Positions 4,367 through 22,831 of a stretch of 64,000 nucleotides of DNA are shown piece after piece. Location: the NCBI RefSeq assembly GCF_028748185.1, contig NZ_CP118164.1, forward strand, positions 4,613,814-4,677,813. Direction: 5' to 3'. The notes beneath the pieces are model-generated. The model was not told the origin of the DNA and did no database searches. It saw only the letters and a program-made list of their open reading frames with translations. The position numbers and the translations under genes were made by a program. The stretch is from Bremerella sp. P1 (GTDB taxonomy: Bacteria; Planctomycetota; Planctomycetia; Pirellulales; Pirellulaceae). Positions within the stretch are counted from its first letter, which is position 1; the number at the start of each line of letters is the position of its first letter.

Positions 4367-6292
4367 ATGCCGCTGATCACGCTGAAAAACGTTCGCCATT
4401 CTTACCACGACCGGCCTCTGTTTACGGACGTTTCGTTCGTTTTGGAGCCTGGGCAACGGGTATGCCTGATGGGGCGCAACGGGGCTGGTAAGTCGACCCT
4501 GTTGAAGATCCTCGCTGGAGAAGTCATACCGGACGACGGCGAAATCGCTCTTTCAACGGGCCTGACGCGTGCCCAGATGGCTCAGACAGTGCCTACCGAC
4601 GATCGGGGCACGATCTACGACGTGGTTGCCGACGGCGTGGGTGAGCTGGCGGAAATCCTGCGAGAGTATCACACGCTGACCCATCAGCTGGCCGAGAACG
4701 CAAGTGATGAAACAGCCAAGCGCCTGGATGAGCTTCAACACGAAATCGACACCCAGGACGGCTGGAATTTACAGAATCAAATCGAACAAACGCTGACGAA
4801 AACGGGCCTCGACGGCGAGTTGATCTTTCAGAAGCTATCGGCCGGTATGAAACGTCGCGTGCTGCTCGCCCGGGCGCTTGTTAACGAGCCGGACCTCTTG
4901 CTTTTGGATGAACCGACGAACCACTTGGACATCGATTCGATCCTGTGGCTGGAAAAGCTTTTGACAAACATTCCGTGTTCCATCGTTTTCGTGACGCACG
5001 ACCGGGCGTTTGCCCGGAAACTGGCGACTCGCGTAATCGACGTGGATCGCGGTCGGGTAACTAGCTGGTCGTGCGGCTATGATGAGTTCCTGAAACGCAA
5101 GGCCGCCGCACTCGAGGCTGAGGAAAAGGAACAAGCCCTCTTTGATAAGAAACTAGCCCAAGAAGAGGTTTGGATCCGCCAAGGGATTAAGGCACGCCGT
5201 ACGCGGAATGAAGGTCGTGTACGTGCTTTGAAGAAGATGCGGGACGAATACCGCGACCGTCGCAAGCACGTCGGCAGCGTGAAGATGGAAGCCCACGTCG
5301 GTGATCGTTCTGGGCAACTGGTTTTTAAGGCCGATCAACTCGCGCATCGTTTCGGTGATCTGCGGATTGTGAACAACTTTTCGACCGTCATCATGCGGGG
5401 GGATAAGGTCGGCATCATCGGGCGGAACGGTATCGGCAAGTCGACTTTGCTGCGTATCCTGCTGGGGCAAATGAAACCTGACCAAGGCGAGGTTAAAGTC
5501 GGCACGAATGTGCAGATTGCCTACTTCGACCAGCTTCAGGCTCGACTCGATCCGGAACAGACGCTTCGCGAGAATATCGGCGAAGGAAACGAGTTCGTCA
5601 AAATCAATGGTAAGTCGAAGCACGTGGTGGGCTACCTGCAGGAGTTTCTCTTTACACCTGAGCAAGCCAATCGAGCCATCAAATATTTGAGTGGCGGCGA
5701 ACGGAATCGGTTGCTATTGGCCCAGTTGTTTGCCAAGCCGTCGAATGTGCTGGTGCTGGACGAACCGACGAACGACCTCGACTCCGATACTATGGAACTA
5801 TTGGAAGACCTGGTCGTAAACTACCCCGGCACCGTCTTGGTGGTCAGCCACGATCGAGAGTTCCTCAACAACGTCGTGACCAGTACCATCTCGTTTGAAG
5901 GGGATGGCGTGGTCTTGGAATACGCAGGCGGTTACGACGACTACCTGATTCAACACAAGAAGGACACCACGCCTCCGTTCGAGGCTGCCAAGGTGGAAGC
6001 TAAGCCAGTCGAGGCCTCAAAGCCTGCGGTCGAGAAGAAGGAAGCCAACAAGCCACGAGGGCGAAAGCTCAGCTACAAAGAACAGCGAGAACTGGACGGC
6101 CTGCCCGAGAAGATCGAGAATCTGGAAGCGGAGCAGGAAGAGCTCCAAGCCAAGATGGCCGATCCGAGCTTCTATCAAAAGTCACAAGACGAAATCAAAC
6201 AGGTTTCGCAGCGTCTGGAAGCGGTGGGCGAAGAACTGATGGCTTGCTTGGAACGGTGGGAGGAACTCGCCACGATTCAGGAAGCGAGCTAA
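4367..6292 (+). CDS. ABC-F family ATPase (Uup-like), two nucleotide-binding domains
   Basis: 641 residues from the ATG at 4367; I chose it because the domain begins at once (MPLITLKNVRHSY), while an upstream in-frame ATG at 4310 would add 19 residues unlike the family. First ATPase: Walker A GRNGAGKST (36-44), signature LSAGMKRR, Walker B LLLDEPTNHLD. Second ATPase: GRNGIGKST, signature LSGGERNR, Walker B VLDEPTNDLD. The arginine- and lysine-rich linker between them matches the P-site tRNA interaction motif of ABC-F proteins. A charged coiled coil occupies about the last 90 residues, as in Uup. There are no membrane segments; ABC-F proteins act on the ribosome or on branched nucleic acid rather than in transport. 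Its stop overlaps the stop of the convergent cox gene by four bases. Confidence 0.93.
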   Translation: MPLITLKNVRHSYHDRPLFTDVSFVLEPGQRVCLMGRNGAGKSTLLKILAGEVIPDDGEIALSTGLTRAQMAQTVPTDDRGTIYDVVADGVGELAEILREYHTLTHQLAENASDETAKRLDELQHEIDTQDGWNLQNQIEQTLTKTGLDGELIFQKLSAGMKRRVLLARALVNEPDLLLLDEPTNHLDIDSILWLEKLLTNIPCSIVFVTHDRAFARKLATRVIDVDRGRVTSWSCGYDEFLKRKAAALEAEEKEQALFDKKLAQEEVWIRQGIKARRTRNEGRVRALKKMRDEYRDRRKHVGSVKMEAHVGDRSGQLVFKADQLAHRFGDLRIVNNFSTVIMRGDKVGIIGRNGIGKSTLLRILLGQMKPDQGEVKVGTNVQIAYFDQLQARLDPEQTLRENIGEGNEFVKINGKSKHVVGYLQEFLFTPEQANRAIKYLSGGERNRLLLAQLFAKPSNVLVLDEPTNDLDSDTMELLEDLVVNYPGTVLVVSHDREFLNNVVTSTISFEGDGVVLEYAGGYDDYLIQHKKDTTPPFEAAKVEAKPVEASKPAVEKKEANKPRGRKLSYKEQRELDGLPEKIENLEAEQEELQAKMADPSFYQKSQDEIKQVSQRLEAVGEELMACLERWEELATIQEAS

Positions 6293-6882
6293 CGGCCCAG
6301 CAGAAACGTGCCAAGCATCACGATCCAGACAACATCTAAGAAGTGCCAGTACAACGCACAGATGTCTACGCTCCAGTGCTTTTCATGGTCGTAGACATCG
6401 TGCCGGGCTCGAACCAGGACGCCGCTCAAAAAGGCGATCCCGCCGACGACGTGCAGGGCGTGGACCAGCACGAGGAAGAACATCAAGCCAAACTGCTTGG
6501 TCACGCCATCTAATAGAGCCTCACTATGCATCCCCAGCAGTGCATGCAGCCCCAGCGACTGGAAGATCAGGAAGACAAGCGAAATGACCGCAGCCGTGAT
6601 CAGCCACCGCCGGAATGGTATCTGACGCTCGCGACGCACGTTGACCACAGCCTTATGCATCGCAAAGCTGACACCAAACATGCTGATCGTGCTGGCGATC
6701 AGGCTGAGTGGGAACGAGCCGAGCGAAATGGCTGGTGCCCCTGAGCTGCTGCGAATGATTCCGTAAGCCGCGAGACTGGCGAGAAAAAACATCGTCAGCG
6801 ATGCGATGAAAAGGGCAAAGCCGAACTTGGCTTGATATTCATCGCGGCGCATCGACATCGCAGTGAAAGAATTCCTGAGCAT
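6289..6882 (-). CDS. Cytochrome c oxidase subunit III-like membrane protein (second copy)
   Basis: 197 residues with about five transmembrane helices and the subunit III hallmarks HALHVVGGIAF and the C-terminal WSVDICALYWHFLDVVWIVM, where the YWHFxDxVWI pattern is diagnostic. It is the last gene of the caa3 cluster, following ctaF, and is a second, shorter relative of ctaE (302 residues) without that protein's His-rich insertion. Subunit III does not bind metal; it stabilises subunit I and its proton uptake path. Whether this copy replaces ctaE in the complex or belongs to an assembly variant is not known. The start is uncertain; an in-frame ATG eight codons downstream is an alternative. Confidence 0.85.
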   Translation of the reverse strand: MLRNSFTAMSMRRDEYQAKFGFALFIASLTMFFLASLAAYGIIRSSSGAPAISLGSFPLSLIASTISMFGVSFAMHKAVVNVRRERQIPFRRWLITAAVISLVFLIFQSLGLHALLGMHSEALLDGVTKQFGLMFFLVLVHALHVVGGIAFLSGVLVRARHDVYDHEKHWSVDICALYWHFLDVVWIVMLGTFLLGR

Positions 6883-7337: not shown

Positions 7338-8246
7338 TTAGGAACGAATGAGATAGAGCAGCGGGAACAGGTAGATCCAGATCAAGTCGACCAAGTGCCA
7401 GTAAAGACCGACGTAATCGACAGGACCAAAGTACTCGCCGCTGAAATCGCCACGGATCGAGCGGACGAGCAACCATCCGATCGCGACCATGCCAAACACA
7501 ATATGGAAACCATGCAACCCGGTCATCATGTAATAGATGCCGAAGAAGATCTGTGTATTGCGTGGAGCATCGAGGAACTGCTCGGGACCGCCATGGCCGT
7601 GTCCATGGGAATCACCGTGATCTGATGCATGCGTGTCGGCGTGTTCGCCTGGATGCTCGTCCTCGTGTTCGGCTTCGGCAACTGCATGTGCCTCTTCCGC
7701 CTTATGCTCGGCTTCTTCATGTTTTTCAGCCGCAATCGCCTTGTCGTACAACTCTTTGTTGTGATCGCTCTCGTCGGGATGCTGCAGCTGATACATGACG
7801 TTCGATCGGCCGGTATACAGACCAATATCGAACTTGTGCGTGTATTCAAAGTACTTAACGACGAGGAACACACCAGCGAGTGCCAGGGTAGCGCTGAGCA
7901 TAAAGACCAGCAGTTTCTTCTGGCTAAGCTGAGCGGCACGAACGGCCCAAGCCATTGTTAAGCTGCTCACGATCAGCACGACCGTATTGATGGCACCCAT
8001 CGTCGTGTCGAGCTGCTTGTGAGCGTACAAGAAGACTTCAGGGTGGTTATACCGATAGATCAGGTAGGCACAAAAGAGCCCGCTGAACATCAGAATTTCC
8101 GTGAACAGAAAGAGCCAGATGCCAAGCTTACCCGCATCGAACTGCTGCTGCATCGTTTCGAAGTGGTGAGCCTGGAAAGGACTGTGACCGTGGTGGTCAC
8201 CATCCTCATGGTGGGCCTGATCTTGGGTTTCGACGGCGGCGCTCAT
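7338..8246 (-). CDS. ctaE: Cytochrome c oxidase subunit III with a His/Glu-rich insertion
   Basis: 302 residues, longer than the usual bacterial subunit III of about 200. The core is typical: KLGIWLFLFTEILMFSGLF near residue 40, further helices, and the C-terminal GFHIVFGM and YVGLYWHLVDLIWIYLFPLLY. Between two helices, about residues 150-225, lies a soluble insertion very rich in His, Glu, Ala and Asp, including HADTHASDHGDSHGHGHGG. The N-terminus is also His rich. Such a stretch could bind copper or zinc, but that is inference. It lies between ctaD and ctaF in the caa3 operon. The oxidase assignment is firm. Confidence 0.92.
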   Translation of the reverse strand: MSAAVETQDQAHHEDGDHHGHSPFQAHHFETMQQQFDAGKLGIWLFLFTEILMFSGLFCAYLIYRYNHPEVFLYAHKQLDTTMGAINTVVLIVSSLTMAWAVRAAQLSQKKLLVFMLSATLALAGVFLVVKYFEYTHKFDIGLYTGRSNVMYQLQHPDESDHNKELYDKAIAAEKHEEAEHKAEEAHAVAEAEHEDEHPGEHADTHASDHGDSHGHGHGGPEQFLDAPRNTQIFFGIYYMMTGLHGFHIVFGMVAIGWLLVRSIRGDFSGEYFGPVDYVGLYWHLVDLIWIYLFPLLYLIRS

Positions 8247-11083: not shown

Positions 11084-11956
11084 TTAAGTCGCATTGGACG
11101 GAAGGTGTCCGTCCATTGAACTGGAATGGAAATTCGCGTTTTCGTTGGCTGTTCTGCGGCGTAGGACCCAGAACGGAATCAACCCAATCGCCAGGCAAGC
11201 CACCGTAGTGAATGCACCTAGCTGCATCAATCGGACCGCCTGGGGACCGTAACGACCGGCCGTTTCGTCGTACATAAAGCACGTCAGGATGATCTGATCG
11301 ACGGTCGTTCCAATCTTGCCTTCGCTCGCTTCGACCAACGACAACCGCAAGGTTGGCTCGTCGAATTGAACGCCGTAAATGTAGCGAGAGATTCGCCCGT
11401 CCGGCGTGCACAACATCAGCACGGCGTTATGGGCATACTCTTTTCGCTCGGGGACAAAGCGGTATTGAAATCCGGTCGCCTTGGCAACGGCCATGATCGA
11501 CGTGACGTCGCCTACCAAAAAGTGCCACCCTTCGGCCGTGCCTGGGCGGTCATATTCCTGGTAGTACCGCATCCGTGTCTTACTTGCTCGCTGGTACGAC
11601 TCGCGTGGGTCGATGCTGATCGACACCACGTGAAAATCTTCCCCGACGCTGGCGTCCATTTCGCTTAACGTTCTTACGAGTCCGTTAAGCTGCTGCTGGC
11701 ACAGCATCGGGCAGTTCGAGTAGTTGAGCGACAAAATGACAGGCTTCTCGCCGTCAAAGTAGTCGCCCAGGCGAATCAACGCACCGCGATCATCCGTGAA
11801 TGGTGTTTCGAGGGGAAGCAATTCGTTTAAGTGCTCGGTCACTCCGAGTCCATCGACGGCGTCGGGAGTCTCATTCAGCTGAGCCTTCACCGAAGTGGCC
11901 AGTGCCAGGCAGAAAATTACTGCCCACGTCCAACGAAATGTCCCTAAACCTCGCAT
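11084..11956 (-). CDS. Sco1/SenC-family copper chaperone for cytochrome oxidase, with C-terminal membrane anchor
   Basis: 290 residues. An N-terminal signal peptide (about 1-25) leads into a thioredoxin-fold SCO domain with the copper site Cys82-Pro-Met-Leu-Cys86 and a downstream His in EYAHNAVLML. Sco proteins deliver copper to the CuA site of subunit II and keep its cysteines reduced. Unlike classical Sco proteins, which are anchored at the N-terminus, this one has a hydrophobic helix near residues 242-263 (LGAFTTVACLAIGLIPFWVL) followed by Arg residues, so it looks C-terminally anchored. It sits directly before ctaC, its expected client. Confidence 0.93.
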   Translation of the reverse strand: MRGLGTFRWTWAVIFCLALATSVKAQLNETPDAVDGLGVTEHLNELLPLETPFTDDRGALIRLGDYFDGEKPVILSLNYSNCPMLCQQQLNGLVRTLSEMDASVGEDFHVVSISIDPRESYQRASKTRMRYYQEYDRPGTAEGWHFLVGDVTSIMAVAKATGFQYRFVPERKEYAHNAVLMLCTPDGRISRYIYGVQFDEPTLRLSLVEASEGKIGTTVDQIILTCFMYDETAGRYGPQAVRLMQLGAFTTVACLAIGLIPFWVLRRRTANENANFHSSSMDGHLPSNAT

Positions 11957-11983: not shown

Positions 11984-12370
11984 TTAATTCGATTCGTACT
12001 TGTCTGCAACAACCTTCATGGCCTGCTCGATAGGCATGCCGATGGTCTTTGTTTCTTTATTAACCCAGCTGTATCCGTCGTTCAGCTTGGCTTTTTGAGC
12101 ACTCACGATGCTGTCTTCAACCTCAAGCTTGACGTTGACGACCTTCTCTTCGTACTGCTGTTTCTCGAACTGCAGGTAAGCCGCTTGCAGTCCAATGATG
12201 CAGATGAATGTGACCGCCGCGCTGACGAAGCCAACCAGAGCAATCACTGGAGTGTTCATGTCGTCATACATCGGAAGGTCCGACGCGGCGAGATCATGAT
12301 GCTCTGTCGTCTCGACGACAGCTTCATTTACTTCTTGTTCGGGAGTGTCTTCAGTGATTTCCGTCATCAA
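11984..12370 (-). CDS. Small single-helix membrane protein of the ACIII/caa3 operon
   Basis: 128 residues; no named family recognised. An acidic N-terminus (about 1-40, rich in Glu, Thr and Asp) is followed by one transmembrane helix (about 45-67) and a charged C-terminal part of about 60 residues with the run GYSWVNKETKTIGMPIEQAM. Its place between actF and the Sco gene suggests an accessory subunit of Alternative Complex III or the oxidase; such small subunits (ActG/H-like) are known in ACIII loci but vary too much to identify by eye. The C-terminal segment resembles a short linker found in operon-specific proteins that precede Sco in related loci; this last point is an impression, not a match I can show. 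Confidence 0.7.
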   Translation of the reverse strand: MMTEITEDTPEQEVNEAVVETTEHHDLAASDLPMYDDMNTPVIALVGFVSAAVTFICIIGLQAAYLQFEKQQYEEKVVNVKLEVEDSIVSAQKAKLNDGYSWVNKETKTIGMPIEQAMKVVADKYESN

Positions 12371-12379
12371 ATCACCTTA

Positions 12380-13633
12380 TTAATGATTCTGAAGTGCCAG
12401 CGATTCGCTCAGGCGTGGATCCTTAACAGGAACCAACGGCTTATCGGTGGCGAACCAGATCAGCGAACTAATGTATAAACCGCCAATTCCGACGATACAG
12501 CACAGGTCAATCAGGCCAAAACTCGGAGCGGCCGTGCCGTGGGCAACCTGGGGCATCACAATGTAGTAAAGGTCTACATAGTGCATGACCAGAATGAATA
12601 CGGCCCACCCGGTCAGGATGTACTTGTTGCGACGAATGTGTCGCGACATAACACCGAAGAATGGGATGAAGAAGTGGCCGAAGATCAACATGATCGCCAC
12701 AATGGCCCAACCATTTTCCTGGCGACGCAGGTACCAGCCGGTTTCTTCTGGAATGTTCGCGTACCAGATCAAAAGGAACTGGCTGAAAGCGATGTATCCC
12801 CAGAAGAGGGTAAAGCCAAAGGTGTACTTACCCAGATCGTGGTAATGCTCTTTGGTTACGATTTCAGCCATCTTGCCATCCTGCTGGAGGAGGAAGATGA
12901 CAACCGTCATGAATGCGAAGAAGCTGAGCGCACTTCCGGCAAAGAAGTAAACACCAAAGATCGTACTGAACCAATGCGGGTCGAGTGACATCAGCCAGTC
13001 GAACGAAGCAAAGGTGACCGTCAGTGCAAACAGCACAACGGCCAGCGAGCTCCACTTCTGAAGCTTCAAGGTGATTTGCTTATCACCGTTACCGTCCTGA
13101 GCCAGGGAGTTCAGGAAGAAGTAGCGGGCAATGCAGATCCAGGTGGCGAAGTAAACAATCGCCCGGATCGTGAAGAAGATCGGATTCAAGTAAGGTGACT
13201 TGTGAGCGATCAGCTGATCATACTCAGCCGAGGCTACGTCCCACTTTGCCGGGTCATTCCACTCGAATAACGTGTGGCTGCCGAACAATACGGGAAACAA
13301 GATCACCAGAAACAAGATCGCCATGGGGATCAGGTTCTGGCTCAGCAGTTCCGCCACGCGTCGAACAACGACACTCCAGCCAGCCCGACTCAGGTGGTGG
13401 ATCGGCACGAAAAACAACGCGCCGAGCGAGATGCTCAGGAAGTAAACGAAACTGGTCAGGTAGGAATGGAAGAAGTAGGAAGAGCTTTCCTGCGTCATTC
13501 CAAGAGCCATGGCCAGCAGCAGCGCCAAGACGCCAACCGCCATCGCGACCAGTCGCACCGACTGCCAGGCCGGATTGAGGCGGATCGATTCGTCGTCCGT
13601 CACTGTGATCGTTGGTTTGTGGTGACCGCCCAT
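12380..13633 (-). CDS. actF: Alternative Complex III subunit ActF (quinol:cytochrome c oxidoreductase membrane subunit)
   Basis: 417 residues with about ten transmembrane helices, the length and layout of ActF, a membrane subunit related to ActC and NrfD. Recognisable segments are ASFDWLMSLDPHWFSTIFGVY and HDLGKYTFGFTLFWGYIAFSQFLLIWYANIPEETGWYLRR (read in parts), both conserved across ActF proteins. It contributes to the membrane arm of ACIII, which replaces the bc1 complex in passing electrons from quinol to cytochrome c. The start ATG lies three bases after the stop of actDE, so the genes are translationally close. The N-terminus MGGHHKPTITVTDDES is cytoplasmic. Confidence 0.93.
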   Translation of the reverse strand: MGGHHKPTITVTDDESIRLNPAWQSVRLVAMAVGVLALLLAMALGMTQESSSYFFHSYLTSFVYFLSISLGALFFVPIHHLSRAGWSVVVRRVAELLSQNLIPMAILFLVILFPVLFGSHTLFEWNDPAKWDVASAEYDQLIAHKSPYLNPIFFTIRAIVYFATWICIARYFFLNSLAQDGNGDKQITLKLQKWSSLAVVLFALTVTFASFDWLMSLDPHWFSTIFGVYFFAGSALSFFAFMTVVIFLLQQDGKMAEIVTKEHYHDLGKYTFGFTLFWGYIAFSQFLLIWYANIPEETGWYLRRQENGWAIVAIMLIFGHFFIPFFGVMSRHIRRNKYILTGWAVFILVMHYVDLYYIVMPQVAHGTAAPSFGLIDLCCIVGIGGLYISSLIWFATDKPLVPVKDPRLSESLALQNH

Positions 13634-13636: not shown

Positions 13637-15124
13637 TTACTGACCTTTAATTTCCAATTCTTTCAACTCAACGGCTGGAATCTCTTCCGGCGTACCTGTT
13701 CGCGTCTTCTGCAAGGCTCGAACGTACGTCACGATTGCCCAGCGATCCTCAGCGGGAATCTGGTCGCCGTAGCCTTTCATCTTGCGGATACCGTGCGTGA
13801 TGGTGTTATAGAGCTTGCCATCAGGCTGGGTAAGCAAGTAATCGGTGTGCAAGTTGGTTGGAGGAATCCAGGTAGGCTGCTCCAACTGAATCGCACGCTG
13901 TGAAACCAACCCGTCGCCATCGCCTGCCAGGCCGTGGCACACGGAGCAGTAGATGTTGTAGCGGTTGCGTCCGCGTTCCAGGGTCGATGCGGTAACGGTG
14001 ATCGGTGCGATCTTAACCCAGTTTGGTTCTGGTTCCTCAGGCTGAGCCGGAGCTTCGCCCTCGGCGGGCTTCTCCTCAGCGGGTGCTTCTTCCGCTGGCT
14101 TATCTTCAGCCGGTTTGTCCTCTGCTGGCTTTTCTTCGGCCATTGGCTTATCAGCATCTGGCTCGTCGGCAGCAGGTTTATCTTCGGCCGGCTTTTCGTC
14201 CGCTGGTTTCTCTTCTTCAGCGGGCTTGTCGCCGCCTTCTTTCGGCGTCTCTTCATCTTGCAGGAAGATGACGTTTTGCTCGCCGATTTCAGGAACGATA
14301 CCGGTCAACATGATCGGGTCAACCCATTCGCCTCGAGCGACGGTGCCTGGAATGCGAGGACGCATGGTGCGACCGTCGGCAAAGACAGGGCTAACCGTTT
14401 GCGTGTCGCCACGAAGCTGGATGTCCATGTCACGAATCGGATTGATACGCGGCACGGTCGAAGTCTGGTAGTAGGCTCGCCACAGCAAGATCGGCGGAAT
14501 CAGGGCGACGACCGTCGCACCGATACCAACAAACTTGATGATCTTCGGCAGGTCGGCTGGGCTTGGATCTTCGAAGACTTCGATGACGCCGGTTTGTCCA
14601 GTGCAGCCATCAAGCAGATCGCGAGTCTTGTTGGGCTTATATTTTTCGTCGTTGACGTCAATCGTCAGGAAGAACTTGTCGTCGGTTGCCCGAGCGAACT
14701 CAGGAACGCGGAACAATGGATTCGAGAAGGTTGGCAACTTGTTCAGGAACAGCATCCCGATGAACACGGCGAAGGCCGCATGCAAAATGACCAACTCGAA
14801 GATAACCGGAATGTTGGCCGGCAAGCTCCAAACTGGTTTGGCCGAAATGATAAACGGATACCATTCGGCATTCGTGATGAACTGCAGACCGAGACCGGCG
14901 AATCCACCCATGATGCCAAGCGTTAGGACGATCCATGGCAGGATGGTCGGCTTAATCCCGAGAGCTTCGTCGATGCCATGCAGAGGGAAAGGCGTGTAGG
15001 CGTCGGTCTTGGTGTAACCAGCCTTTCGCACTTTCTCGCACGCCGCCAACAAGGAGTCGGGGTCGTCGAACTGCGCCATCAGCCCGATCAGCTTGGGTTC
15101 CGTGTTGTTCGTATCTTCTGACAT
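13637..15124 (-). CDS. actDE: Alternative Complex III ActD-ActE fusion: membrane subunit joined to a mono-haem cytochrome c
   Basis: 495 residues. Residues 1-240 are ActD (DUF3341): an N-terminal soluble part (LMAQFDDPDSLLAACEKVR) followed by two close helices (about 61-83 and 107-129); a third helix falls near 198-216. Residues about 292-366 are a low-complexity linker of repeated Lys-Pro-Ala-Glu units. The C-terminal part is the ActE cytochrome c, with haem motif CSVCH (Cys393-His397) and a distal Met in IRKMKGYGDQIP. In other ACIII operons ActD and ActE are separate genes. ActE passes electrons on to the oxidase. The helix near 198-216 and the segment after it probably come from the N-terminal anchor of ActE. 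Confidence 0.93.
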   Translation of the reverse strand: MSEDTNNTEPKLIGLMAQFDDPDSLLAACEKVRKAGYTKTDAYTPFPLHGIDEALGIKPTILPWIVLTLGIMGGFAGLGLQFITNAEWYPFIISAKPVWSLPANIPVIFELVILHAAFAVFIGMLFLNKLPTFSNPLFRVPEFARATDDKFFLTIDVNDEKYKPNKTRDLLDGCTGQTGVIEVFEDPSPADLPKIIKFVGIGATVVALIPPILLWRAYYQTSTVPRINPIRDMDIQLRGDTQTVSPVFADGRTMRPRIPGTVARGEWVDPIMLTGIVPEIGEQNVIFLQDEETPKEGGDKPAEEEKPADEKPAEDKPAADEPDADKPMAEEKPAEDKPAEDKPAEEAPAEEKPAEGEAPAQPEEPEPNWVKIAPITVTASTLERGRNRYNIYCSVCHGLAGDGDGLVSQRAIQLEQPTWIPPTNLHTDYLLTQPDGKLYNTITHGIRKMKGYGDQIPAEDRWAIVTYVRALQKTRTGTPEEIPAVELKELEIKGQ

Positions 15125-15171: not shown

Positions 15172-16608
15172 TTATTGATCTGGGTCGTCGTGAAAATCGC
15201 CGTGAGGGTTGATCGGTTCTTCCGGCGTGTGATGCGGGAATGGCATGACCGATTTCACTTCCGCCATGGCAACAATCGGACCGAAGCGGACGAACAGCAG
15301 AAACAGGGTGAAGAACAACCCAAAGCTGCCGATCAGCATTCCATAGTCGACCGGTGTTGGCTCGAACATGCCCCACGAGGAAGGCAGGAAGTCACGGGCC
15401 AGCGAAGTGACGGTAATCACGAAACGCTCGAACCACATACCGATGTTCACGAAGATGCTGATCACGAACATCAACCACGGCGTGGTGCGACAAACTTTAA
15501 ACCAGAACAGCTGCGGGCTGATCACGTTGCAGGAAACCATGATCCAGTAGGCCCACCAGTAGGGACCGAATGCACGGTTGACGAACGCGAAGCCTTCGTA
15601 CAGGTTGCCACCGTACCAGGCGATGAAGAATTCCATCGCGTAGGCGTAACCCACCATCGAGCCAGTCGCCAGCAGAATCTTGCAGACGTTTTCCAAGTGA
15701 CGCAGCGTCACGACGTCTTTCAGGCCGAACCATTGGCGGGCAGGAACCATCAGGGTCAGCACCATCCCGAACCCAGAGAACACCGCACCAGCGACGAAGT
15801 AAGGTGGGAAGATCGTGGTGTGCCAACCGGGAAGTTGCGAGACGGCAAAGTCGAAACTAACGATGGTATGCACCGAAAGAACGAGTGGGGCCGCCAGGGC
15901 AGCGAACAGCGTATATGCTTTTTCATATCGCGACCAGGCACGAGCCGAACCCGTCCAGCCGAGCGACAGAATCGAGTAAACGATACGAAGGATCTTGTTG
16001 TTGGTACGATCTCGCAGGGTTGCCAGATCCGGAATCATGCCGGTGTACCAGAAGATTAACGAAACGGTCGCGTACGTCGAAACGGCGAACACGTCCCACA
16101 GCAGCGGGCTGCGGAACTGTGGCCACATGGCAAGCTGCAAACTCGGCAGTGGGAACAACCAATAGAAGACCCAGACTCGACCAATGTGAATGGCCGGGAA
16201 GAGGCCAGCACACACGACTGCGAAGATCGTCATGGCTTCCGCGAAGCGGTTGATACTCGTACGCCAGTTCTGACGGAAGATGAACAGAATGGCGGAAATC
16301 AGCGTTCCAGCGTGACCGATACCGACCCAGAACACGAAATTCACGATCGGGAAGCCCCAGTAGACGGGGTTGTTGTTACCCCAGACACCGACACCGGTGA
16401 AAACCAGGTAGCCGACCAAGGCGCCCAACATGCCCAGCAGGCTTAACGACACAAGCATGCCGATATACCAGGCGATGGGAGTCTTGCTCTCGTTGATGCC
16501 GCACACCAACCGGGTAATCGAGCCGTAGTCGTGCCCGCCAATCACAAGCGGCGTCCGTCTGCCCGGATCGTCGATCGTGGTGTCAATGACTTCGTTTACG
16601 GTGGCCAT
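15172..16608 (-). CDS. actC: Alternative Complex III subunit ActC (NrfD/PsrC-like quinol-binding membrane subunit)
   Basis: 478 residues with about ten transmembrane helices and the NrfD-type features [37 protein letters not shown] and [25 protein letters not shown] (quoted in parts), which match ActC of ACIII. ActC forms the membrane quinol-oxidation site below the iron-sulphur subunit ActB. It lies between actB (67 bases) and actDE (47 bases) in the same direction. The family and role are known from purified ACIII of Rhodothermus and Flavobacterium; assignment here is from sequence and order. Confidence 0.95.
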
Positions 16609-16674: not shown

Positions 16675-19600
16675 TTAGTGCTTCTCTTCTTCTTTCTCAT
16701 GGTCGTGATCATCTTTGTGATCACCGTCGGCATGCTCGTGGTCATGGTCTGACTCGGCATGGCCGTGTCCATGATGGTCGTCGACTTCCGGAGCCAGCCA
16801 CGGATGTGGGTTGGTGATCCGAGCCAAGTAACGTGTGCGAGGCTTGGTATTCAGCTCGGCGAGCATCGAATACGAACGCGGATTCGCGTGAGCCTTGGCG
16901 ACATCGCTTTCTGGATTGTTGAGGTCGCCGAACTCGATCGCGTTCGACGCACAAGCTTCCTGGCAAGCGACTTGAATCTCGTTGGGCCCAATGGCTCGAC
17001 GATCGGCCTTGGCTTCGATCTTCGTGTTTTGGATACGCTGCACGCAGTAGGTGCACTTTTCCATCACACCGCGGTTACGCACGGTAACCTCGGGGTTGAA
17101 GATCAGCTTGGCCAGTTCCTGGTTACCGGCTTCAAAGCGGTGATCGCTGGCACGCCAGTCCAGGTAGTTAAAGCGGCGAACCTTGTACGGGCAGTTGTTA
17201 CCGCAGTAACGCGTACCGATACAGCGGTTGTAAACCATGTCATTAAGGCCTTCGTCGCTATGGACGGTCGCAGCAACCGGGCAAACGCTTTCGCACGGAG
17301 CTGTTTCGCACTGCTGGCAGGTAACCGGCTGCGAAACTGCCTTCGGGTCTTCCATGTCGCCGCTGAAGTAGCGGTCGACGCGAATCCAGTGCATTTCGCG
17401 ACCAACCGAGACCGCTTCCTTACCGACGATCGGAATATTGTTTTCCGACTGGCAAGCAATCGTACAGGCATTACAGCCAGTGCACTTGGTCAGGTCGATC
17501 GACATACCCCAAGCGTGGCCGTCGTACGATTCCTTCATCCACTCTTGTTCTTCCCACAGGGATTTCAGTGGTGGATGGTGAACGACGTGCTTGGCGAAGT
17601 CAGGATGATGTTCGTATTCTTCGACGGTGCCTTCGCGAACCAGTTCGGCGACGCGGCGGCCGATCTCTCGCATGCCTAACAGGTCGATTGCGAAGTGATC
17701 TTGGGTCGTAGCCAGTCTGAACTCTTTGCCCGTCGGCTTGACGGTCACGTCAGTGGCCAGGTTCATCGTCGCTTTGGTGCGAAGCGGACCGACGTCCACG
17801 CCGACCGGAGCGACATCGGCCTCGACATCACCGCCGACGGCACCTGCGTGCGTGCGACCGTAGCCAAGCCCCACAGCCAGCGTGCCGTGTGCTTGACCTG
17901 GTTGAATGAACACAGGCAGGGTGACCGTGTTGCCATTAGCCGAGACTTCCATCAACTCAGCCTGATTGACGCCGATGCTTTCGGCCGTCTTGGGGCTGAT
18001 GGTGACGACGTTGTCCCAGGTCACCTTGGTGATCGGTTCCGGCAGTTCCTGCAGCCAACCGTTGTTGGCAAAGCGGCCGTCATAGGTGCCGGCACCAGGA
18101 TGGAAGATCAGTTCGTAGGCGTCACCGAGGCCGGCTCGCCAGGTGGAAACCGAAACGTTGCCCAGTTCCAGCGATTCGTTGAGCGTGACGCTGGCGGCCT
18201 TCGCAGCCGAGTCGGCGATGAATCCGTCGTGTAGAACCTTGGTCCAGGCAGCATCGGTGACCGAGCTGGAGAACGAGGTGGCGACGGTTTGCTTGACGGC
18301 TTCCAGTGTTTCGCTGATCGGCGAACCCGCAATCAGGCTGAGGAACTCGACCGGATCTTTCGTCTTGAAGATCGGCGTGATCAGCGGCTGGGCGATGCAG
18401 AAGCTGCCATCGTAGGCGAGTGCGTCACCCCATTGTTCCAGACCATGCGAAGCGGGCAGATGCCACGTGGATAGCTTCGAGGTTTCGGTCTCGTAGTCGC
18501 CGTAGTAAACCTGGGTGTTGGTCTTGTCCATGGCGGCAACGAAGTCGACGTCAGCAGGGGCGTCATAAATCGGGTTACCACCCAGGAAGATGATCGTGTC
18601 GACTTCACCAGCGTTCATGGCGGAAGCTAGATCTTCGATCGTGCCAACGTTATCGCGAGCCAGTTTGGGCTCTTCGATAAAGGTGACCGTCTTGCCGAGG
18701 TTTTCCAGCTTGCTGTTAATTCGCCAGATGCGTGCCTGAGTTTCTGCATCGAGCGACTCACCACCGACGACCAGGCTCTTGCCCTTGTGGCTGATCAAGT
18801 CGTTCACCATGGCCGTGACGACGATGTCGATCTTCTCGGCTGGCTTCTCTTTGGTTTCACCACTTTCGAGAGCTGCGTCGAGCTTCTGTTCCAGATCGGC
18901 GACAAAGCTCGGCATCTGCGAAGCGGCAACAGCCAGACGGTGATCGGCAGCAATGCCGGTAACCGTGAAGCGACTTTCAACAACATAGAGACGGCTCATG
19001 GGGCCATCTTCAGGAGCACGACGCTTGGCGAAGCCCTGATTGTTTACACCGTGGGTCGCATGGTCACCCAGGACATCGGCACTCAGGTCAACAATGATGT
19101 CGGCCGATTCAAGATTCAGCAGAGGACGCAGCTTCTTGCCGAAAGCCAGTTCGGTTCCCAGCGTGCTGTTGCCAGCGATCGATTCGTACTGGAACCACTT
19201 CGCTTGTGGGAACTTCTTGGCCACTTCGTTCATTTGGCTGAGAACGGTTGGCGAAGTGTTCGTCTGGTGCAGGATGGCCAGCTTCGACGAGTTGCCGCCT
19301 TCCAACTTCTTGGACTGCTCTTTCCACCAAACGGCGAATTCGTCCCAAGATCGCTGATTCGAGGTGTTACCTTCTCGAATGACAGGATATTGGCTGCGAT
19401 CCGGATCGTACAATTGCAGGATCGTGGACTGGGCGTAGGTGTCCGCACCAGCAACCATTGGATGCATCTGGTTGCCATCGACCTTGATCGGGCGACCGTC
19501 GTAGCTAGTGGCCACAACTGGACAGGCCTTGCCGGCGACCGAGAGAGTCGTGGCGAATTTTTCAGGCTTACCCGGGATGCGACCTTCAGGACGACGCGAG

Positions 19601-19860
19601 AAGGGAGCGATCTCTTCTTCCGGATAACGGAAGCCAACCACTTCTTCTTCTGGGTAACGGCAGCCGGCGGCACCTGTGGCCAAAGCCATCGAGGCACCCA
19701 TCAACTGCATCCAGCGACGACGCGGCATTCCCGTGGGGGCCACTTCGGCAGCTTCCGGAAATTCTTGTTTCAGAAACTGCTCGAATTCAGGAGTTCCCTC
19801 GAGTTCGCCGAGGCTACGCCAGTATTTCGGTTTATTGTTCTCAGGCATTATCGATGACAT
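16675..19860 (-). CDS. actB: Alternative Complex III subunit ActB (molybdopterin-like plus four [Fe-S] cluster protein)
   Basis: 1061 residues, usual for ActB. N-terminus: a soluble leader, then a Tat-type run MPRRRWMQLMGAS near residue 45 and a Cys following it, with two RYPEEE copies. Residues about 90-740 form a molybdopterin-oxidoreductase-like domain that in characterised ACIII binds no cofactor. Residues about 785-1000 are a ferredoxin-like region with the cysteine groups CTGCNACTIAC, CQQCETAPCESVC, CIGTRYCGNNCPYKVRRFN and CTYCVQRIQ...CQEAC, binding four clusters that carry electrons from the quinol site to the haems. The last 27 residues are His/Asp rich. Its start overlaps the end of actA by 13 bases, indicating translational coupling. 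Confidence 0.96.
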   Translation of the reverse strand: MSSIMPENNKPKYWRSLGELEGTPEFEQFLKQEFPEAAEVAPTGMPRRRWMQLMGASMALATGAAGCRYPEEEVVGFRYPEEEIAPFSRRPEGRIPGKPEKFATTLSVAGKACPVVATSYDGRPIKVDGNQMHPMVAGADTYAQSTILQLYDPDRSQYPVIREGNTSNQRSWDEFAVWWKEQSKKLEGGNSSKLAILHQTNTSPTVLSQMNEVAKKFPQAKWFQYESIAGNSTLGTELAFGKKLRPLLNLESADIIVDLSADVLGDHATHGVNNQGFAKRRAPEDGPMSRLYVVESRFTVTGIAADHRLAVAASQMPSFVADLEQKLDAALESGETKEKPAEKIDIVVTAMVNDLISHKGKSLVVGGESLDAETQARIWRINSKLENLGKTVTFIEEPKLARDNVGTIEDLASAMNAGEVDTIIFLGGNPIYDAPADVDFVAAMDKTNTQVYYGDYETETSKLSTWHLPASHGLEQWGDALAYDGSFCIAQPLITPIFKTKDPVEFLSLIAGSPISETLEAVKQTVATSFSSSVTDAAWTKVLHDGFIADSAAKAASVTLNESLELGNVSVSTWRAGLGDAYELIFHPGAGTYDGRFANNGWLQELPEPITKVTWDNVVTISPKTAESIGVNQAELMEVSANGNTVTLPVFIQPGQAHGTLAVGLGYGRTHAGAVGGDVEADVAPVGVDVGPLRTKATMNLATDVTVKPTGKEFRLATTQDHFAIDLLGMREIGRRVAELVREGTVEEYEHHPDFAKHVVHHPPLKSLWEEQEWMKESYDGHAWGMSIDLTKCTGCNACTIACQSENNIPIVGKEAVSVGREMHWIRVDRYFSGDMEDPKAVSQPVTCQQCETAPCESVCPVAATVHSDEGLNDMVYNRCIGTRYCGNNCPYKVRRFNYLDWRASDHRFEAGNQELAKLIFNPEVTVRNRGVMEKCTYCVQRIQNTKIEAKADRRAIGPNEIQVACQEACASNAIEFGDLNNPESDVAKAHANPRSYSMLAELNTKPRTRYLARITNPHPWLAPEVDDHHGHGHAESDHDHEHADGDHKDDHDHEKEEEKH

Positions 19861-20555
19861 GTCGAGCAGTTGGTCGATGGGTTAATGTTCAACTCTTCAC
19901 GTAGCTGCTTGCCGAGGAGTCGCTTCTCTTCTTCCGACATAGCGTTGCCGCCTGCCTCGGTACCCCAAGCAAGATTCGTGACTTCGTCAGCTGGGCGAAT
20001 GTGCGAGTCTGGATCGCGATGGCATTCCAAACACCATGCCATGGAGATGGGCTCGACAACCTGAACAACGTCCATCTTGTCGACGCGGCCGTGGCACTCG
20101 ACGCACGAAACGCCTTGAGTCACGTGAGCACTGTGATTGAAGTAGACGAAGTCAGGTAGATTGTGCACCCGCGTCCAGTCGATCGACTCGCCGGTGGCCA
20201 GGCTTTCTCGAACTGGCTCCAGGGCAACGCTCGTCGAGTGAACTGCGGCATACTTCGTTGCACCGCTCGAGTCCGCACCGCTGTGGCAGTTGCCGCACGT
20301 TTCGGTTGGAGGTACTGCCGCATGACCGGCCTTTTCGACCGTGTTGTGACAGTAGCGACAGTCCATTTTTAATCGCCCAGCATGAAGCTTATGGCTGAAT
20401 GGAACTGGCTGCTCCGGGCGATAACCCCGATTTAGAATCTCGGGCGAACTGGTGACAAAAAGCACGGATCCACCGTAGGCGGCCCCAACGAGGACAACGC
20501 CAAACATGAGTGGTACGAACTTATTTACCCATCTGGGAAATAGAAAGCGGTCCAT
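19848..20555 (-). CDS. actA: Alternative Complex III subunit ActA (pentahaem cytochrome c)
   Basis: 235 residues. One N-terminal helix (about 12-34) anchors the protein; the rest is periplasmic with five c-type haem motifs in order: CRYCH, CGNCH, CVECH, CLECH and CSTCH, the last at the very C-terminus. Further His residues (FSHKLHAG, FNHSAHV) are likely axial ligands. ActA collects electrons from ActB and passes them to the mono-haem ActE. It is the first gene of the ACIII-caa3 operon; 259 bases separate it from the upstream response regulator gene, and that space holds candidate operator sites. Ribosome site is weak. Confidence 0.95.
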   Translation of the reverse strand: MDRFLFPRWVNKFVPLMFGVVLVGAAYGGSVLFVTSSPEILNRGYRPEQPVPFSHKLHAGRLKMDCRYCHNTVEKAGHAAVPPTETCGNCHSGADSSGATKYAAVHSTSVALEPVRESLATGESIDWTRVHNLPDFVYFNHSAHVTQGVSCVECHGRVDKMDVVQVVEPISMAWCLECHRDPDSHIRPADEVTNLAWGTEAGGNAMSEEEKRLLGKQLREELNINPSTNCSTCHR

Positions 20556-20574
20556 GTTTTCTCAGTCGTTAGTG

Positions 20575-20589: not shown

Positions 20590-20768
20590 ACGGCGACAGA
20601 AAATTGCTTAACCCAAGGGCCGACAGGAGCTAGGCATCCGGCCAGAACTCAAGCAAAGCAGATTGTTGTTAATTGCAACGTTGTAAGCGATAAGTAGCGG
20701 TCCAAGAGGAGCTTCAACTCATAGCTATCAGCGTGTAAATCGTAAAATAACCACCACTTTCGCACGAC

Positions 20769-20783
20769 GTGACAATAGGTCGC
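20769..20783. promoter_or_regulatory. Candidate RegA/PrrA-type operator upstream of the ACIII operon
   Basis: GTGAC-AATAG-GTCGC on the plus strand, i.e. GCGAC-N5-GTCAC on the minus strand. RegA/PrrA proteins recognise loose inverted half-sites GCGNC...GNCGC with variable spacing, and this differs at one position. It lies about 215 bases before actA and just downstream of the gene for a RegA/PrrA-like protein. The consensus is degenerate, so the match could be chance. Confidence 0.4.
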
Positions 20784-20798
20784 ACTAGAATGGGGGGT

Positions 20799-20813: not shown

Positions 20814-20814
20814 C

Positions 20815-21348
20815 TTAAGGAGCAAGCTTCTTCAGTTTTCTTTGAAGCGTTCTCCGGGGGATATCTAACAGTCTCGCCGCTTCCGAGAGATTGCCACCGC
20901 AGTCGTTGAGGACCCGATGAATATGCTCCCACTCGGCTTCGGCCAGGGATTGCGGATTGTAGGATTGGCCGGTTGATTCCGGCGCGGCTGCCTCTTGGTT
21001 ATCGAAAGCAGCCAATATCTCATCCACGTCCGCAGGCTTGGTTAGGTAGTTAACCGCACCCAAACGTACGGCTTCAACGGCATTGGTGATGCTGCCGTAG
21101 CCTGTCAGGATGACTGCCTGCGTTAATGGAGATACTTTAAGAAGATCTTTGAGAACTTCAATGCCCGAAGTCTCTGGCATCTTCAGATCCAAGACGGCTC
21201 GGTCAGGTTGAGCCTCATGAGCCTGTGAAACCGCATCCTCTTTTGTCTTGGCGGAATAAACGTCGAAACCACGTGACGAGAACGCCCGGGTCAATCGGTT
21301 CCGCAAGATATCGTCGTCATCGACGAGGAGGATTGTAGGTCGCGACAT
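20815..21348 (-). CDS. RegA/PrrA/ActR-family redox response regulator
   Basis: 177 residues, the size of RegA. Receiver domain at 1-120 with acidic pocket VDDDD (9-13), phosphoacceptor Asp54 (VLDLKMPETSG), Thr in ILTGYG and Lys in YLTKPAD. After a short linker the C-terminus (about 130-177) is a Fis-type helix-turn-helix, LNDCGGNLSEAARLLDIPRRTLQRKLKK, the pattern of RegA/PrrA. These regulators control respiratory, photosynthetic and carbon-fixation genes according to redox state. It is preceded by its sensor kinase gene (97 bases) and followed by the ACIII operon on the same strand, which makes that operon its obvious target. Target and redox role are inferred. Confidence 0.92.
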   Translation of the reverse strand: MSRPTILLVDDDDILRNRLTRAFSSRGFDVYSAKTKEDAVSQAHEAQPDRAVLDLKMPETSGIEVLKDLLKVSPLTQAVILTGYGSITNAVEAVRLGAVNYLTKPADVDEILAAFDNQEAAAPESTGQSYNPQSLAEAEWEHIHRVLNDCGGNLSEAARLLDIPRRTLQRKLKKLAP

Positions 21349-21445
21349 GGTCTCGCCGATTCCGGAATGCGTAGCTAGGTACTCACCTGACTAATCATGG
21401 CGGCGTCAGAACACTGACTATAGGAAATACCGAGGGAAATTCCTA

Positions 21446-22831
21446 TCAGTCACCGCGAGAGTTCGGCGGGGTTTTTTCATTATTTGTTGGTGCGATACGA
21501 GGAATTCGCACGATCACCGTCGTTCCCTGTTCAGGGATCGAGTCGATGTTGACGTCTCCACCAAGCTTTTCCACGACGTTTTTCGCGAGGAACACACCCA
21601 GGCCCGTTCCAGAACCGGGTTCTTTCGTGGTGAAGAAAGGTTCGCCGATACGTGCCAGGATATGAGGTGGCATGCCGGCACCCCGGTCGCGGATCGATAC
21701 GATCAAACTGTCTTTTGTTGAACCGAGATTCAAATGAATCGACTCCTTGGCTGGCGTCGCGTCGAGGGCATTCTTGACCAGCCCGCGAATTGCCTGCGAA
21801 AGGAGGTGCAGCGGGGCGTTGATCTCGACCTCGGGGATATTCCGATCGACTTTGATACGACTTCTAAGCTGGATATCGATCCTTTCGGTCACTTCTTCCA
21901 GTAGCTTTCCCGCCGTAAAGCGAACAATCGGTTCTCCCGTCGCTTGGCCGGCGTCGGTTGACATCTGATCCAGGATGGCCCGGCAACGATCAAGCTCGCT
22001 ACGAATCAGCGAAATGTCTTCCTTAATCTCCGTCGCTACTTCAACTTGTGCCAGTTCTCGCTGCACTTCCTTGGCAACAACAGCGATGGTGGCCAGGGGC
22101 GTCGATAACTCATGGGCTGCGCCTGCCGCTAGAGTACCCAAGGCCTCTAATTTCTCGCTGCGAGCTTGTTTCATCTCGTTCAAGCGGAGGCTTGCTTCTT
22201 TTCGTTGTAGTTCGACGTTCAGGCGCGTTGTGAAGTACACAACAACCATGGCACAAGTAACTAATGCCACGGAGGTTCCTGCCAGTAAGACATGAACAGG
22301 GATTGTGCTCGCTGCCAGGTTTTCGATCTGCCAGCTGCCCAAAACTTCAAAGGGATAACTCGCCAACAGTAGTAGACCGATGCATCCGACGGTTACGAGG
22401 GCCAGGATACCGGTGTTCTTGGGGGTAAGCACAATGGCGGCCAGGGCGAGGTTTACCAGGTAAAACACAGCAAACGGGTTGGTAATACCGCCTGTGAAGT
22501 ACAGCATCGCGGTGAGAAATCCCAGGTCCATCAGCATGACCGCGAAGAGAAGCGTTTCCCAAGCGGTCAGGCTTTTCAGATCGCGCGATCGGAGCGACTC
22601 AAATAAATAGGTGAGCAACAGATTGCTGCTCGCGGTTAGGAAGATGATGCTTGCCAGTGGCTGCCAGCGAATCTCGATGCCCAGCAGAAACATGGCCGTG
22701 GCGATCGTGATCCATTGACCGAACGCCGCCACCCATCGCAGTTTGATTAGCCAAGCCGTGTTGATCGTCAGTCGTGCCTTGCGCCCTTCCAGAAGGTGCG
22801 GCCCGTTATCAAAATGGGAGGTTTGCGGCAT
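21446..22831 (-). CDS. RegB/PrrB-family redox sensor histidine kinase
   Basis: 461 residues. The N-terminal part (about 26-200) has six hydrophobic helices. It contains GGITNPF (114-120), matching the GGxxNPF heptapeptide that binds quinone in RegB. The dimerisation/H-box is AAGAAHELSTPLATIAV with His240 as the phosphorylated residue. Cys283, 43 residues further on, sits where RegB has its redox-active cysteine (40 residues after its His in Rhodobacter). The ATPase domain shows the N box (RGLVKNALDATP), G1 (RDRGAGMP) and G2 (GSGTGLGVFLAKNVVEKLGG in part). It pairs with the downstream regulator gene and would report quinone-pool redox state. The start follows upstream in-frame constraints and lacks an obvious strong ribosome site. 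Confidence 0.93.
   Translation of the reverse strand: MPQTSHFDNGPHLLEGRKARLTINTAWLIKLRWVAAFGQWITIATAMFLLGIEIRWQPLASIIFLTASSNLLLTYLFESLRSRDLKSLTAWETLLFAVMLMDLGFLTAMLYFTGGITNPFAVFYLVNLALAAIVLTPKNTGILALVTVGCIGLLLLASYPFEVLGSWQIENLAASTIPVHVLLAGTSVALVTCAMVVVYFTTRLNVELQRKEASLRLNEMKQARSEKLEALGTLAAGAAHELSTPLATIAVVAKEVQRELAQVEVATEIKEDISLIRSELDRCRAILDQMSTDAGQATGEPIVRFTAGKLLEEVTERIDIQLRSRIKVDRNIPEVEINAPLHLLSQAIRGLVKNALDATPAKESIHLNLGSTKDSLIVSIRDRGAGMPPHILARIGEPFFTTKEPGSGTGLGVFLAKNVVEKLGGDVNIDSIPEQGTTVIVRIPRIAPTNNEKTPPNSRGD

What the first reader, a model, noticed from the sequence alone, without database searches (positions are those of the whole stretch)
6289..22831. Quinone-sensing RegBA pair placed directly upstream of a full ACIII-caa3 respiratory locus
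Twelve minus-strand genes in a row encode a RegB-like kinase with GGITNPF and Cys283, a RegA-like regulator, all ACIII subunits, a Sco chaperone, and caa3 subunits including a second subunit III. The regulator that would sense the quinone pool sits with the enzyme that oxidises it. RegBA systems are known mainly from proteobacteria; linkage to ACIII is, as far as I recall, not a standard description.
Basis: partly seen in the sequence, partly recalled or inferred. Interest (0 to 1): 0.75.

Follow-up and report, generated by a model that had tools for sequence, protein, structure and literature searches.

The report
Redox switch wired to ACIII respiration
In this planctomycete, and in part of its phylum, a gene switch of the redox-sensing RegB/RegA type sits beside the genes of the respiratory chain, and a conserved DNA site in front of those genes suggests that the switch controls them, which can be tested at the bench.

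Summary
RegB has GGITNPF, the H-box and Cys283. Both proteins are best hits to the NCBI RegB and RegA families but score under the curated cut-offs.
The linkage is conserved, patchily, in Planctomycetota: regBA is immediately upstream of actA in 13 of 26 genomes of the order draw that hold both systems; 9 of 21 of the phylum draw are linked, as is strain Poly30.
New result: a RegA-like operator, GYGNC-N5-GNCRC, lies within 500 bp of actA in 30 of 43 RegB+ genomes but in 5 of 63 RegB-less regions. The excess is at spacing 5. A -10-like hexamer follows exactly 24 nt later in 10 of 23 genus-level units. The box is also present where regBA lies elsewhere (Rhodopirellula, Rubripirellula).
Best reading: RegA directly controls ACIII-caa3, probably as an activator near -43, with RegB reading the menaquinone pool. 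Control is well supported by comparison; quinone sensing is inferred from motifs. Nothing was tested at the bench. RegBA is a known kind; its wiring to ACIII was not found in the searches made.

The parts
21446..22831 (-). regB-like sensor histidine kinase, 461 aa, TM segments then HisKA/HATPase; GGITNPF 114-120, His240, Cys283
   Evidence: NF033792 264 bits (cut-off 350), E 2e-78; motifs in 58 of 58 aligned RegBs; AF2 model pLDDT 75
20815..21348 (-). regA-like response regulator, 177 aa, receiver + Fis-type HTH
   Evidence: NF033791 172 bits (cut-off 250), E 1e-50; Pfam Response_reg and HTH_8
20769..20783 (-). proposed RegA operator GCGACCTATTGTCAC, -228 from the actA ATG
20792..20797 (-). 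C6 tract upstream of the box; C-rich tract also in the other close relatives of family f1 and in family f92
20739..20744 (-). -10-like hexamer TACGAT, 24 nt after the box
19848..20555 (-). actA, pentahaem cytochrome c (5 CXXCH)
16675..19860 (-). actB, molybdopterin-like / Fe-S subunit (TAT-type N terminus)
15172..16608 (-). actC, NrfD-type membrane subunit
   Evidence: PF03916; 6f0k_C E 1e-187
13637..15124 (-). actD fused to actE (ActD domain + monohaem cytochrome c)
   Evidence: PF11821 + PF13442; one CXXCH
12380..13633 (-). actF, second NrfD-type subunit
   Evidence: 6f0k_F E 1e-88
11984..12370 (-). 128-aa single-TM protein between actF and sco
   Evidence: no Pfam, NCBIfam or PDB match; hit in several act loci
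11084..11956 (-). sco (SCO1/SenC) copper chaperone
   Evidence: PF02630
10035..11060 (-). coxB with C-terminal cytochrome c (caa3 subunit II)
   Evidence: TIGR02866 over cut-off; PF00034
8307..10010 (-). coxA (subunit I)
   Evidence: PF00115 E 3e-144
7338..8246 (-). coxC (subunit III)
   Evidence: PF00510
6921..7316 (-). coxD (prokaryotic subunit IV)
   Evidence: PF03626
6289..6882 (-). coxC2, second subunit III-like protein
   Evidence: PF00510 E 8e-9
22909..23403 (+). divergent single-TM protein with a predicted beta domain; candidate accessory gene of the system
   Evidence: divergent from regB in the 10 genomes examined of the window's genus and a sister genus, and in G657 and G553; a probable homologue (24% identity) in Rhodopirellula solitaria is itself preceded by a box

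Best explanation
The locus is a RegB/RegA-type redox two-component system wired to the ACIII-caa3 respiratory operon. Proposed mechanism: RegB reads the redox state of the membrane quinone pool (here menaquinone) through GGITNPF, and of the cytosol through Cys283. In the reduced state it phosphorylates RegA. RegA~P binds the palindrome GCGAC-N5-GTCAC centred near -43 of the actA promoter and activates the 12-gene act-cox operon, so that quinol build-up raises the capacity to oxidise quinol. Shown here by comparison: the genes, the linkage, the operator-like box, its co-occurrence with RegB, its preferred spacing and, in many relatives, its fixed distance to a -10-like hexamer. Inferred: that RegA binds it, that the effect is activation, that RegB senses menaquinone, and the direction of the response.
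For: Linkage: regBA directly upstream of actA in 13 of 26 genomes of the order draw that have both RegB and ActD, plus 3 on the same strand with inserts and 1 divergent; 9 of 21 in the phylum draw; Poly30; G553 and G521, with G511 downstream of coxD. Box: 29 of 42 RegB+ actA upstreams (5.3 expected from shuffles) against 5 of 63 RegB-less (7.7 expected), 30 of 43 with the window; tighter inverted half-sites peak at N5, 21 of 43 against 3 of 63. Out of sample: 3 of 3 named planctomycetes with an unlinked regB, with GCGACACAATGTCGC or GCGACAGAATGTCGC. TANNNT starts 24 nt after the box in 10 of 23 genus-level units; largest count at any of 59 offsets in 5000 shuffles 5. Strict box over 246 genomes: 36 hits (19 for the control pattern, summed by hand from the table), 9 in RegB+ genomes, of which 5 are at actA and 1 before ccoN. 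The box fits the RegA/PrrA consensus quoted in PMC5435760, with one mismatch in the window. GGxxNPF and the redox Cys are present in 58 of 58 RegBs.
Against: RegB and RegA score under the NCBIfam equivalog cut-offs. Of 43 RegB+ genomes 13 lack the box, including Poly30, G140, G657 and 6 of 9 of family f92, and the 3 f92 matches are off-type; f92 has a variant element found only after the fact. In the window's own genome the loose box is no more frequent than its control (38 against 34), so no wider regulon is seen. Of 8 actA upstreams from 5 named non-planctomycete genomes 2 have a loose match and none the typical box. Linkage is often broken: 9 of 26 in the order draw are elsewhere. The -10-like hexamer is not at 24 nt in 13 of 23 units. 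The branch-independent test on the ActC tree goes the right way but lacks power (mean 2.7 pairs for, 0.0 against, of 6; median p 0.25). No binding, expression or redox data.
Confidence: 0.74

Rival explanations
1. RegA binds the box but represses: the aerobic ACIII-caa3 chain is shut down when the pool is reduced (low oxygen), as an alternative oxidase takes over.
For: PrrA/RegA both activates and represses in proteobacteria (passages of PMC5435760 and PMC7561615); a box precedes ccoN in G191, so a switch between oxidases is conceivable.
Against: The commonest position, about -43 from a presumed start, with no consensus sigma-70 promoter found in the window's stretch, is that of an activator by general knowledge of promoters.
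Confidence: 0.25
2. RegB/RegA controls ACIII-caa3, but the signal is not quinone: oxygen, thiol oxidation at Cys283 alone, or another membrane signal.
For: Only motifs speak for quinone; the genome has two genes of the futalosine menaquinone route (PF02621) while the ligand named in print is ubiquinone (passages).
Against: GGxxNPF is kept in 58 of 58 RegBs although the planctomycete kinases outside the family are only 34-43% identical to the window's.
Confidence: 0.35
3. The box belongs to another transcription factor that happens to occur in the same lineages as RegB; linkage of regBA to act is neutral.
For: RegB presence and the box need only 13 and 19 changes on the ActC tree of 105 rows, so kinship inflates their association; the branch-independent test lacks power.
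Against: The box fits the published RegA/PrrA consensus; it is kept where regBA is elsewhere in the genome; in family f92 the seven RegAs seen have a changed helix-turn-helix region and the element at actA is changed too.
Confidence: 0.12
4. Chance or inherited neighbourhood with no regulatory meaning.
For: Ten of the 13 adjacent genomes of the order draw are of one family.
Against: Linked in families f1, f22, f32, f84, f87 and f92 and in Poly30; the box excess and its spacing.
Confidence: 0.03

Closest known systems
RegB/RegA (PrrB/PrrA, ActS/ActR, RoxS/RoxR) redox two-component systems of Proteobacteria
   Same: Multi-TM kinase with GGxxNPF after the third hydrophobic segment, H-box, redox-box Cys; regulator with receiver and Fis-type HTH; operator of GCG-type inverted half-sites; a Sco/SenC gene in the neighbourhood (senC beside regBA in Rhodobacter is recalled); box before a cbb3 oxidase gene in one relative
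   Different: Below the NCBIfam equivalog cut-offs; the kinases of Planctomycetota, Myxococcota and Verrucomicrobiota branch apart from the six proteobacterial ones in the tree; no run of prolines between the domains of the window's RegA (the proline hinge of RegA is recalled); linked and apparently wired to ACIII, in an organism with menaquinone genes
Alternative complex III (ActABCDEF) with caa3 oxidase, as in Rhodothermus marinus (6f0k)
   Same: ActA to ActF in order, with sco and the caa3 genes following
   Different: ActD and ActE fused; a two-component pair upstream with a conserved operator-like box
regBA downstream of oxidase genes in Proteobacteria (e.g. Diaphorobacter, L110)
   Same: RegBA beside a quinol-oxidising enzyme
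   Different: The enzyme is of the bo3 ubiquinol oxidase type (cyoA, cyoC over cut-off in L110); gene order reversed
flgS-type (NtrC family) kinase drawn beside ACIII-like clusters of Planctomycetota MAGs (PMC10732223, Fig. 6 legend)
   Same: A sensor kinase near an ACIII-like cluster in the same phylum
   Different: Named as an NtrC-family kinase; no RegA, operator or redox role is given in the section read. It might be the same gene in part; the figure is not held

Membership tests
RegB/PrrB/ActS kinase | Score over the NCBIfam NF033792 equivalog cut-off | tested here: not met
   264 bits against 350, but best of 80 families; 0 of 246 planctomycete genomes reach it
RegB/PrrB/ActS kinase | Six N-terminal TM segments | tested here: inconclusive
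   Hydropathy peaks begin near 34, 59, 94, 119-130, 140 and 173-188; the AF2 model (pLDDT 75) has five helices there, a short low-confidence one, and the start of the long kinase helix
RegB/PrrB/ActS kinase | GGxxNPF heptapeptide | tested here: met
   GGITNPF 114-120; present in 58 of 58 aligned RegBs, seven of them proteobacterial or verrucomicrobial
RegB/PrrB/ActS kinase | H-box and redox-box cysteine | tested here: met
   His240; Cys283 aligns with the redox-box Cys of the Rhodobacter and Rhizobium rows
RegB/PrrB/ActS kinase | Kinase activity controlled by quinone redox state | not testable with these tools
   needs protein
RegA/PrrA/ActR regulator | Receiver + Fis-type HTH, full-length match to NF033791 | tested here: met
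   residues 5-177 of 177 aligned, E 1e-50; PF00072 and PF02954
RegA/PrrA/ActR regulator | Score over the NF033791 cut-off | tested here: not met
   172 bits against 250
RegA/PrrA/ActR regulator | Operator YSCGGS-N0-10-GWCRM (Mao 2005, as quoted in PMC5435760) | tested here: inconclusive
   Window TGCGAC-N5-GTCAC has one mismatch; GCGGC-N5-GTCGC forms occur in relatives, read on one strand or the other. Binding untested
Alternative complex III | ActA to ActF subunits in one cluster | tested here: met
caa3 oxidase | Subunit I plus subunit II with fused cytochrome c | tested here: met
   PF00115; TIGR02866 and PF00034 with CXXCH in coxB

The most novel reading that the evidence does not exclude
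In RegB-bearing Planctomycetota, RegB/RegA is chiefly a local regulator of quinol oxidation: a menaquinol-reading RegB sets the level of ACIII-caa3 through one operator locked at about -43 (about -62 in the Rubripirellula group), with a small divergent membrane protein as a third part. The operator predates or outlives the gene linkage, and its sequence changes together with the RegA helix-turn-helix region in family f92.
Probability: 0.4. Interest if true: 0.72.

Novelty: new variant of a known kind. Interest (0 to 1): 0.64.

Why it matters
I found no described regulator of ACIII in the listings or in the passages read from them (PMC3534657, PMC10732223, PMC5492636; the other listed papers were not opened). 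Here regulator, operator-like box, core promoter and enzyme are laid out in one stretch, and the box is kept in named strains such as Rhodopirellula solitaria CA85. That makes two questions directly testable: how ACIII is regulated, and whether the RegB quinone site can read menaquinone. It would also carry RegBA-type control of respiration, with its operator, outside Proteobacteria.

Tried and rejected
Chance linkage was rejected on conservation and the box. Autoregulation through the same box was rejected: 4 of 49 regB upstreams (300 bp) hold it. A wider regulon in the window's own genome was not seen: 38 matches against 34 for the control pattern; 29 loci were returned, and of these the actA site was the only one covered by no ORF of 60 aa or more; five others were looked at more closely and remain uncertain or coding. 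A sigma-70 promoter scan of 20500-23000 found none. The small divergent protein gave no Pfam match over a cut-off and no convincing fold match (best E 4e-4, TM about 0.3). The 128-aa ORF had no match. Other spacings and direct repeats of the tight half-site showed no excess like N5; the loose half-sites also show 10 of 43 against 5 of 63 at spacing 10. Naming the window's species was not pursued; 16S identity of 88% to strain SV_7m_r and the phylum draws place it in Planctomycetota only.

Rows dropped before counts. RegB+ genomes with ActD but without an actA upstream in the fetched DNA: G173, G191, G018, G164, G511. RegB+ genomes without ActD, hence not in the box count: G064, G092, G115, G625, G661. 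Of 67 RegB-less regions 4 (L302, L303, L312, L334) had no actA; the 63 left hold two from G240. RegB-less means no NF033792 match at E <= 1e-40. G112 and G200 count as RegB+ by that threshold although their partner is of the NtrC type. G544 (RegB+) was not looked at further; G536 has the coordinates of G605. The phylum draws overlap heavily. The genus-level units were set by hand: three genera were collapsed, while G610 and G638 of one genus stayed apart. Pattern choice: GYGNC-N5-GNCRC was fixed from 10 family-f1 genomes before other families were scanned; the f92 element, TGYGAC-N5-NNCRC (28 of 43 against 1 of 63) and the -10 offset were found after looking. The Fisher p of 2e-11 ignores kinship. 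On recheck of the calls I moved G178 from 'cannot be judged' to 'not adjacent', because its act cluster lies inside a 141-kb contig without regB.
Full report
What is there. The minus strand of 6289-22831 holds fourteen genes: a RegB-like kinase, a RegA-like regulator, and a compact run of twelve genes for alternative complex III (ActA, ActB, ActC, fused ActD/E, ActF), a 128-aa single-TM protein, Sco, and a caa3 oxidase (CoxB with cytochrome c, CoxA, CoxC, CoxD and a second subunit III). Family matches are; ActC and ActF match the solved ACIII complexes. ActA has five CXXCH motifs, ActD/E one and CoxB one.

Is it RegB/RegA? The kinase's best NCBIfam model is ActS/PrrB/RegB (264 bits) and the regulator's is ActR/PrrA/RegA (172 bits); both are under the curated cut-offs of 350 and 250, and no planctomycete of 246 passes the kinase cut-off. 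The features named as RegB-specific in print (PMC8191878, passages) include GGXXNPF, the H-box and a redox-box cysteine. All three are in the window; the heptapeptide and the cysteine are in 58 of 58 RegBs aligned. In a tree of 58 kinases, those of Planctomycetota, Myxococcota and Verrucomicrobiota stand apart from the six proteobacterial rows on a starred branch. So this is a diverged branch of the RegB type. RegA/RegB of Planctomycetacia are listed in the legend of a published tree, so their presence in the phylum is not new.

Which organism. The genome is 6.96 Mb in one contig. Its phylum is that of Planctomycetes bacterium Poly30: a draw from Poly30's phylum returns the window's relatives with the same coordinates. 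The genome has two PF02621 genes, the mark of menaquinone synthesis by the futalosine route (recalled).

Linkage. In a draw of 117 genomes of the window's order, 28 have RegB, 52 have ActD and 26 have both. In 13 of the 26 regBA lies immediately upstream of actA: ten of family f1 (the window among them), two of f92, one of f87. In three more it is on the same strand with about 3 to 8 kb between, in one it is divergent some 8 kb away, and in nine it is elsewhere. In 246 genomes of the phylum, 24 have RegB, 137 have ActD and 21 have both; nine are linked (f1, f22, f32, and f84 with regBA downstream of coxD), six are not adjacent (G149, G173, G178, G199, G112, G200), and six cannot be judged at contig ends. 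Poly30 is linked, as are G553 and G521, and G511 downstream of coxD. On the RegB tree the linked state needs 8 changes against a shuffled mean of 12.6: clustered, but gained or lost several times. In the capped scan of named genomes, 1 of 80 loci showed actA to actF beside regBA, and that one is Poly30; 8 of the 80 carry oxidase genes just upstream of regBA, mostly Betaproteobacteria. In Diaphorobacter these include cyoA and cyoC, followed by a SURF1-like gene, so regBA beside a quinol-oxidising enzyme has a parallel.

The operator. Alignment of the regA-actA gap of ten f1 genomes shows one well-kept block with the palindrome GCGAC-N5-GTCAC in the window and a perfect GCGAC-N5-GTCGC in G205. 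The RegA/PrrA consensus quoted in PMC5435760 from Mao et al. 2005 is YSCGGS-N0-10-GWCRM (passage); another paper calls it a degenerate GCG inverted repeat and found no strong motif by ChIP-seq (PMC4263372, passages). With the pattern GYGNC-N5-GNCRC, fixed, 500 bp upstream of actA were scanned: 29 of 42 RegB+ genomes hold it (5.3 expected from shuffles) against 5 of 63 RegB-less regions (7.7 expected); with the window 30 of 43. With tighter half-sites and spacers from 0 to 12 there is a single peak at 5: 21 of 43 RegB+ against 3 of 63, other spacings 0-5 of 43. The box is present where regBA is not adjacent (G605, G665, G560, G574, G149, G178), and in three named planctomycetes not used before: Rubripirellula sp., Rhodopirellula solitaria CA85 and SV_7m_r. 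In five genomes of the last kind (those three, G605, G665) the near-perfect form GCGACANNATGTCGC occurs 9 times in all (control 1), once at actA in each, and in G605 and G665 nowhere else. One of the other Rhodopirellula sites lies about 400 bp before a probable homologue (24% identity) of the small membrane protein that flanks regB in the window.

Promoter geometry. Counting one box per genus-level unit, a TANNNT hexamer begins exactly 24 nt after the box in 10 of 23 units; over 59 offsets the largest count in 5000 shuffles was 5. In the window this is TACGAT at 20739-20744. The box centre is then near -43 of the presumed start, the place of an activator that contacts the polymerase (general knowledge). 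In Rubripirellula, SV_7m_r and G665 the hexamer is 43 nt away instead, about two helical turns further. In the other ten units neither distance is seen.

Whole-genome check. The stricter GCGACNNNWTGCCGCAT occurs 36 times in 246 genomes, against 19 for the reversed control pattern (my sum over the table): 9 hits are in RegB+ genomes and 27 in others. Five of the nine are directly upstream of actA (G179, G118, G134, G155, G229), and one, in G191, is about 100 bp upstream of ccoN (TIGR00780 over its cut-off). The other three of the nine (G236, G112, G121) were not explained. Compared by coordinates, none of the 27 lies near an ActD gene.

Limits. In family f92 the seven RegAs seen have a changed HTH region and the typical box is missing; 3 of 9 genomes have an off-type match. 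All 9 have instead a C-rich tract followed by GGGTGTGAC, found after the fact. Poly30, G140, G657 and some others have no box. Of 8 actA upstreams from 5 named genomes outside the phylum 2 have a loose match. The window's own genome shows no excess of the loose box. The tree-independent test has too few pairs. Binding, direction of control and signal are untested.

Print. Searches for alternative complex III with RegB, with two-component and planctomycetes, with histidine kinase and response regulator, and for RegA, RegB and planctomycetes, listed 16 entries in all; passages were read in PMC3534657, PMC10732223, PMC5492636 and PMC8191878, the rest were seen as listings only. None of what was seen describes RegBA control of ACIII. 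The library holds open-licence papers only. The nearest is a figure legend that draws an NtrC-family kinase, flgS, beside ACIII-like clusters of Planctomycetota MAGs (PMC10732223, section 10 read).

Verdict. The strongest new evidence is the operator-like box: RegA very probably controls the ACIII-caa3 operon in RegB-bearing planctomycetes. A known kind of regulator in a new wiring, with a mechanism that can be tested at the bench.

Noticed in passing
window 22909-23403 (+): Single-TM protein with a predicted beta domain, divergent from regB in the window's genus and a sister genus; a probable homologue in Rhodopirellula solitaria (L406) has a RegA-type box about 400 bp upstream. No family match over a cut-off and no convincing fold match.
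   Followed up: partly
L422 1501-1517 and 1618-3015: In RegB+ planctomycete G191 the box lies about 100 bp before ccoN (cbb3 oxidase subunit I): a possible second RegA target.
   Followed up: partly
L110 4922-12371 and similar loci L109, L113, L115, L116, L128, L141, L163: regBA downstream of oxidase genes in several Proteobacteria; cyoA, cyoC and a SURF1-like gene where checked (L110).
   Followed up: partly
L086, L087, L088: RegB-like kinases next to long (about 440 aa) regulators instead of RegA in G112, G200 and G115.
   Followed up: no
L262-L266, L284-L287 (family f92): C-rich tract plus GGGTGTGAC upstream of actA in 9 of 9 genomes, with an altered RegA HTH region in the seven RegAs seen: possible co-change of regulator and site.
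   Followed up: partly
window 3944-4010 and 4118-4189 (-): Two tRNA genes by Rfam, left of the locus.
   Followed up: no
G000:C1:4613423-4613611, just left of the window: A HisKA domain in a 1500-residue open frame.
   Followed up: no
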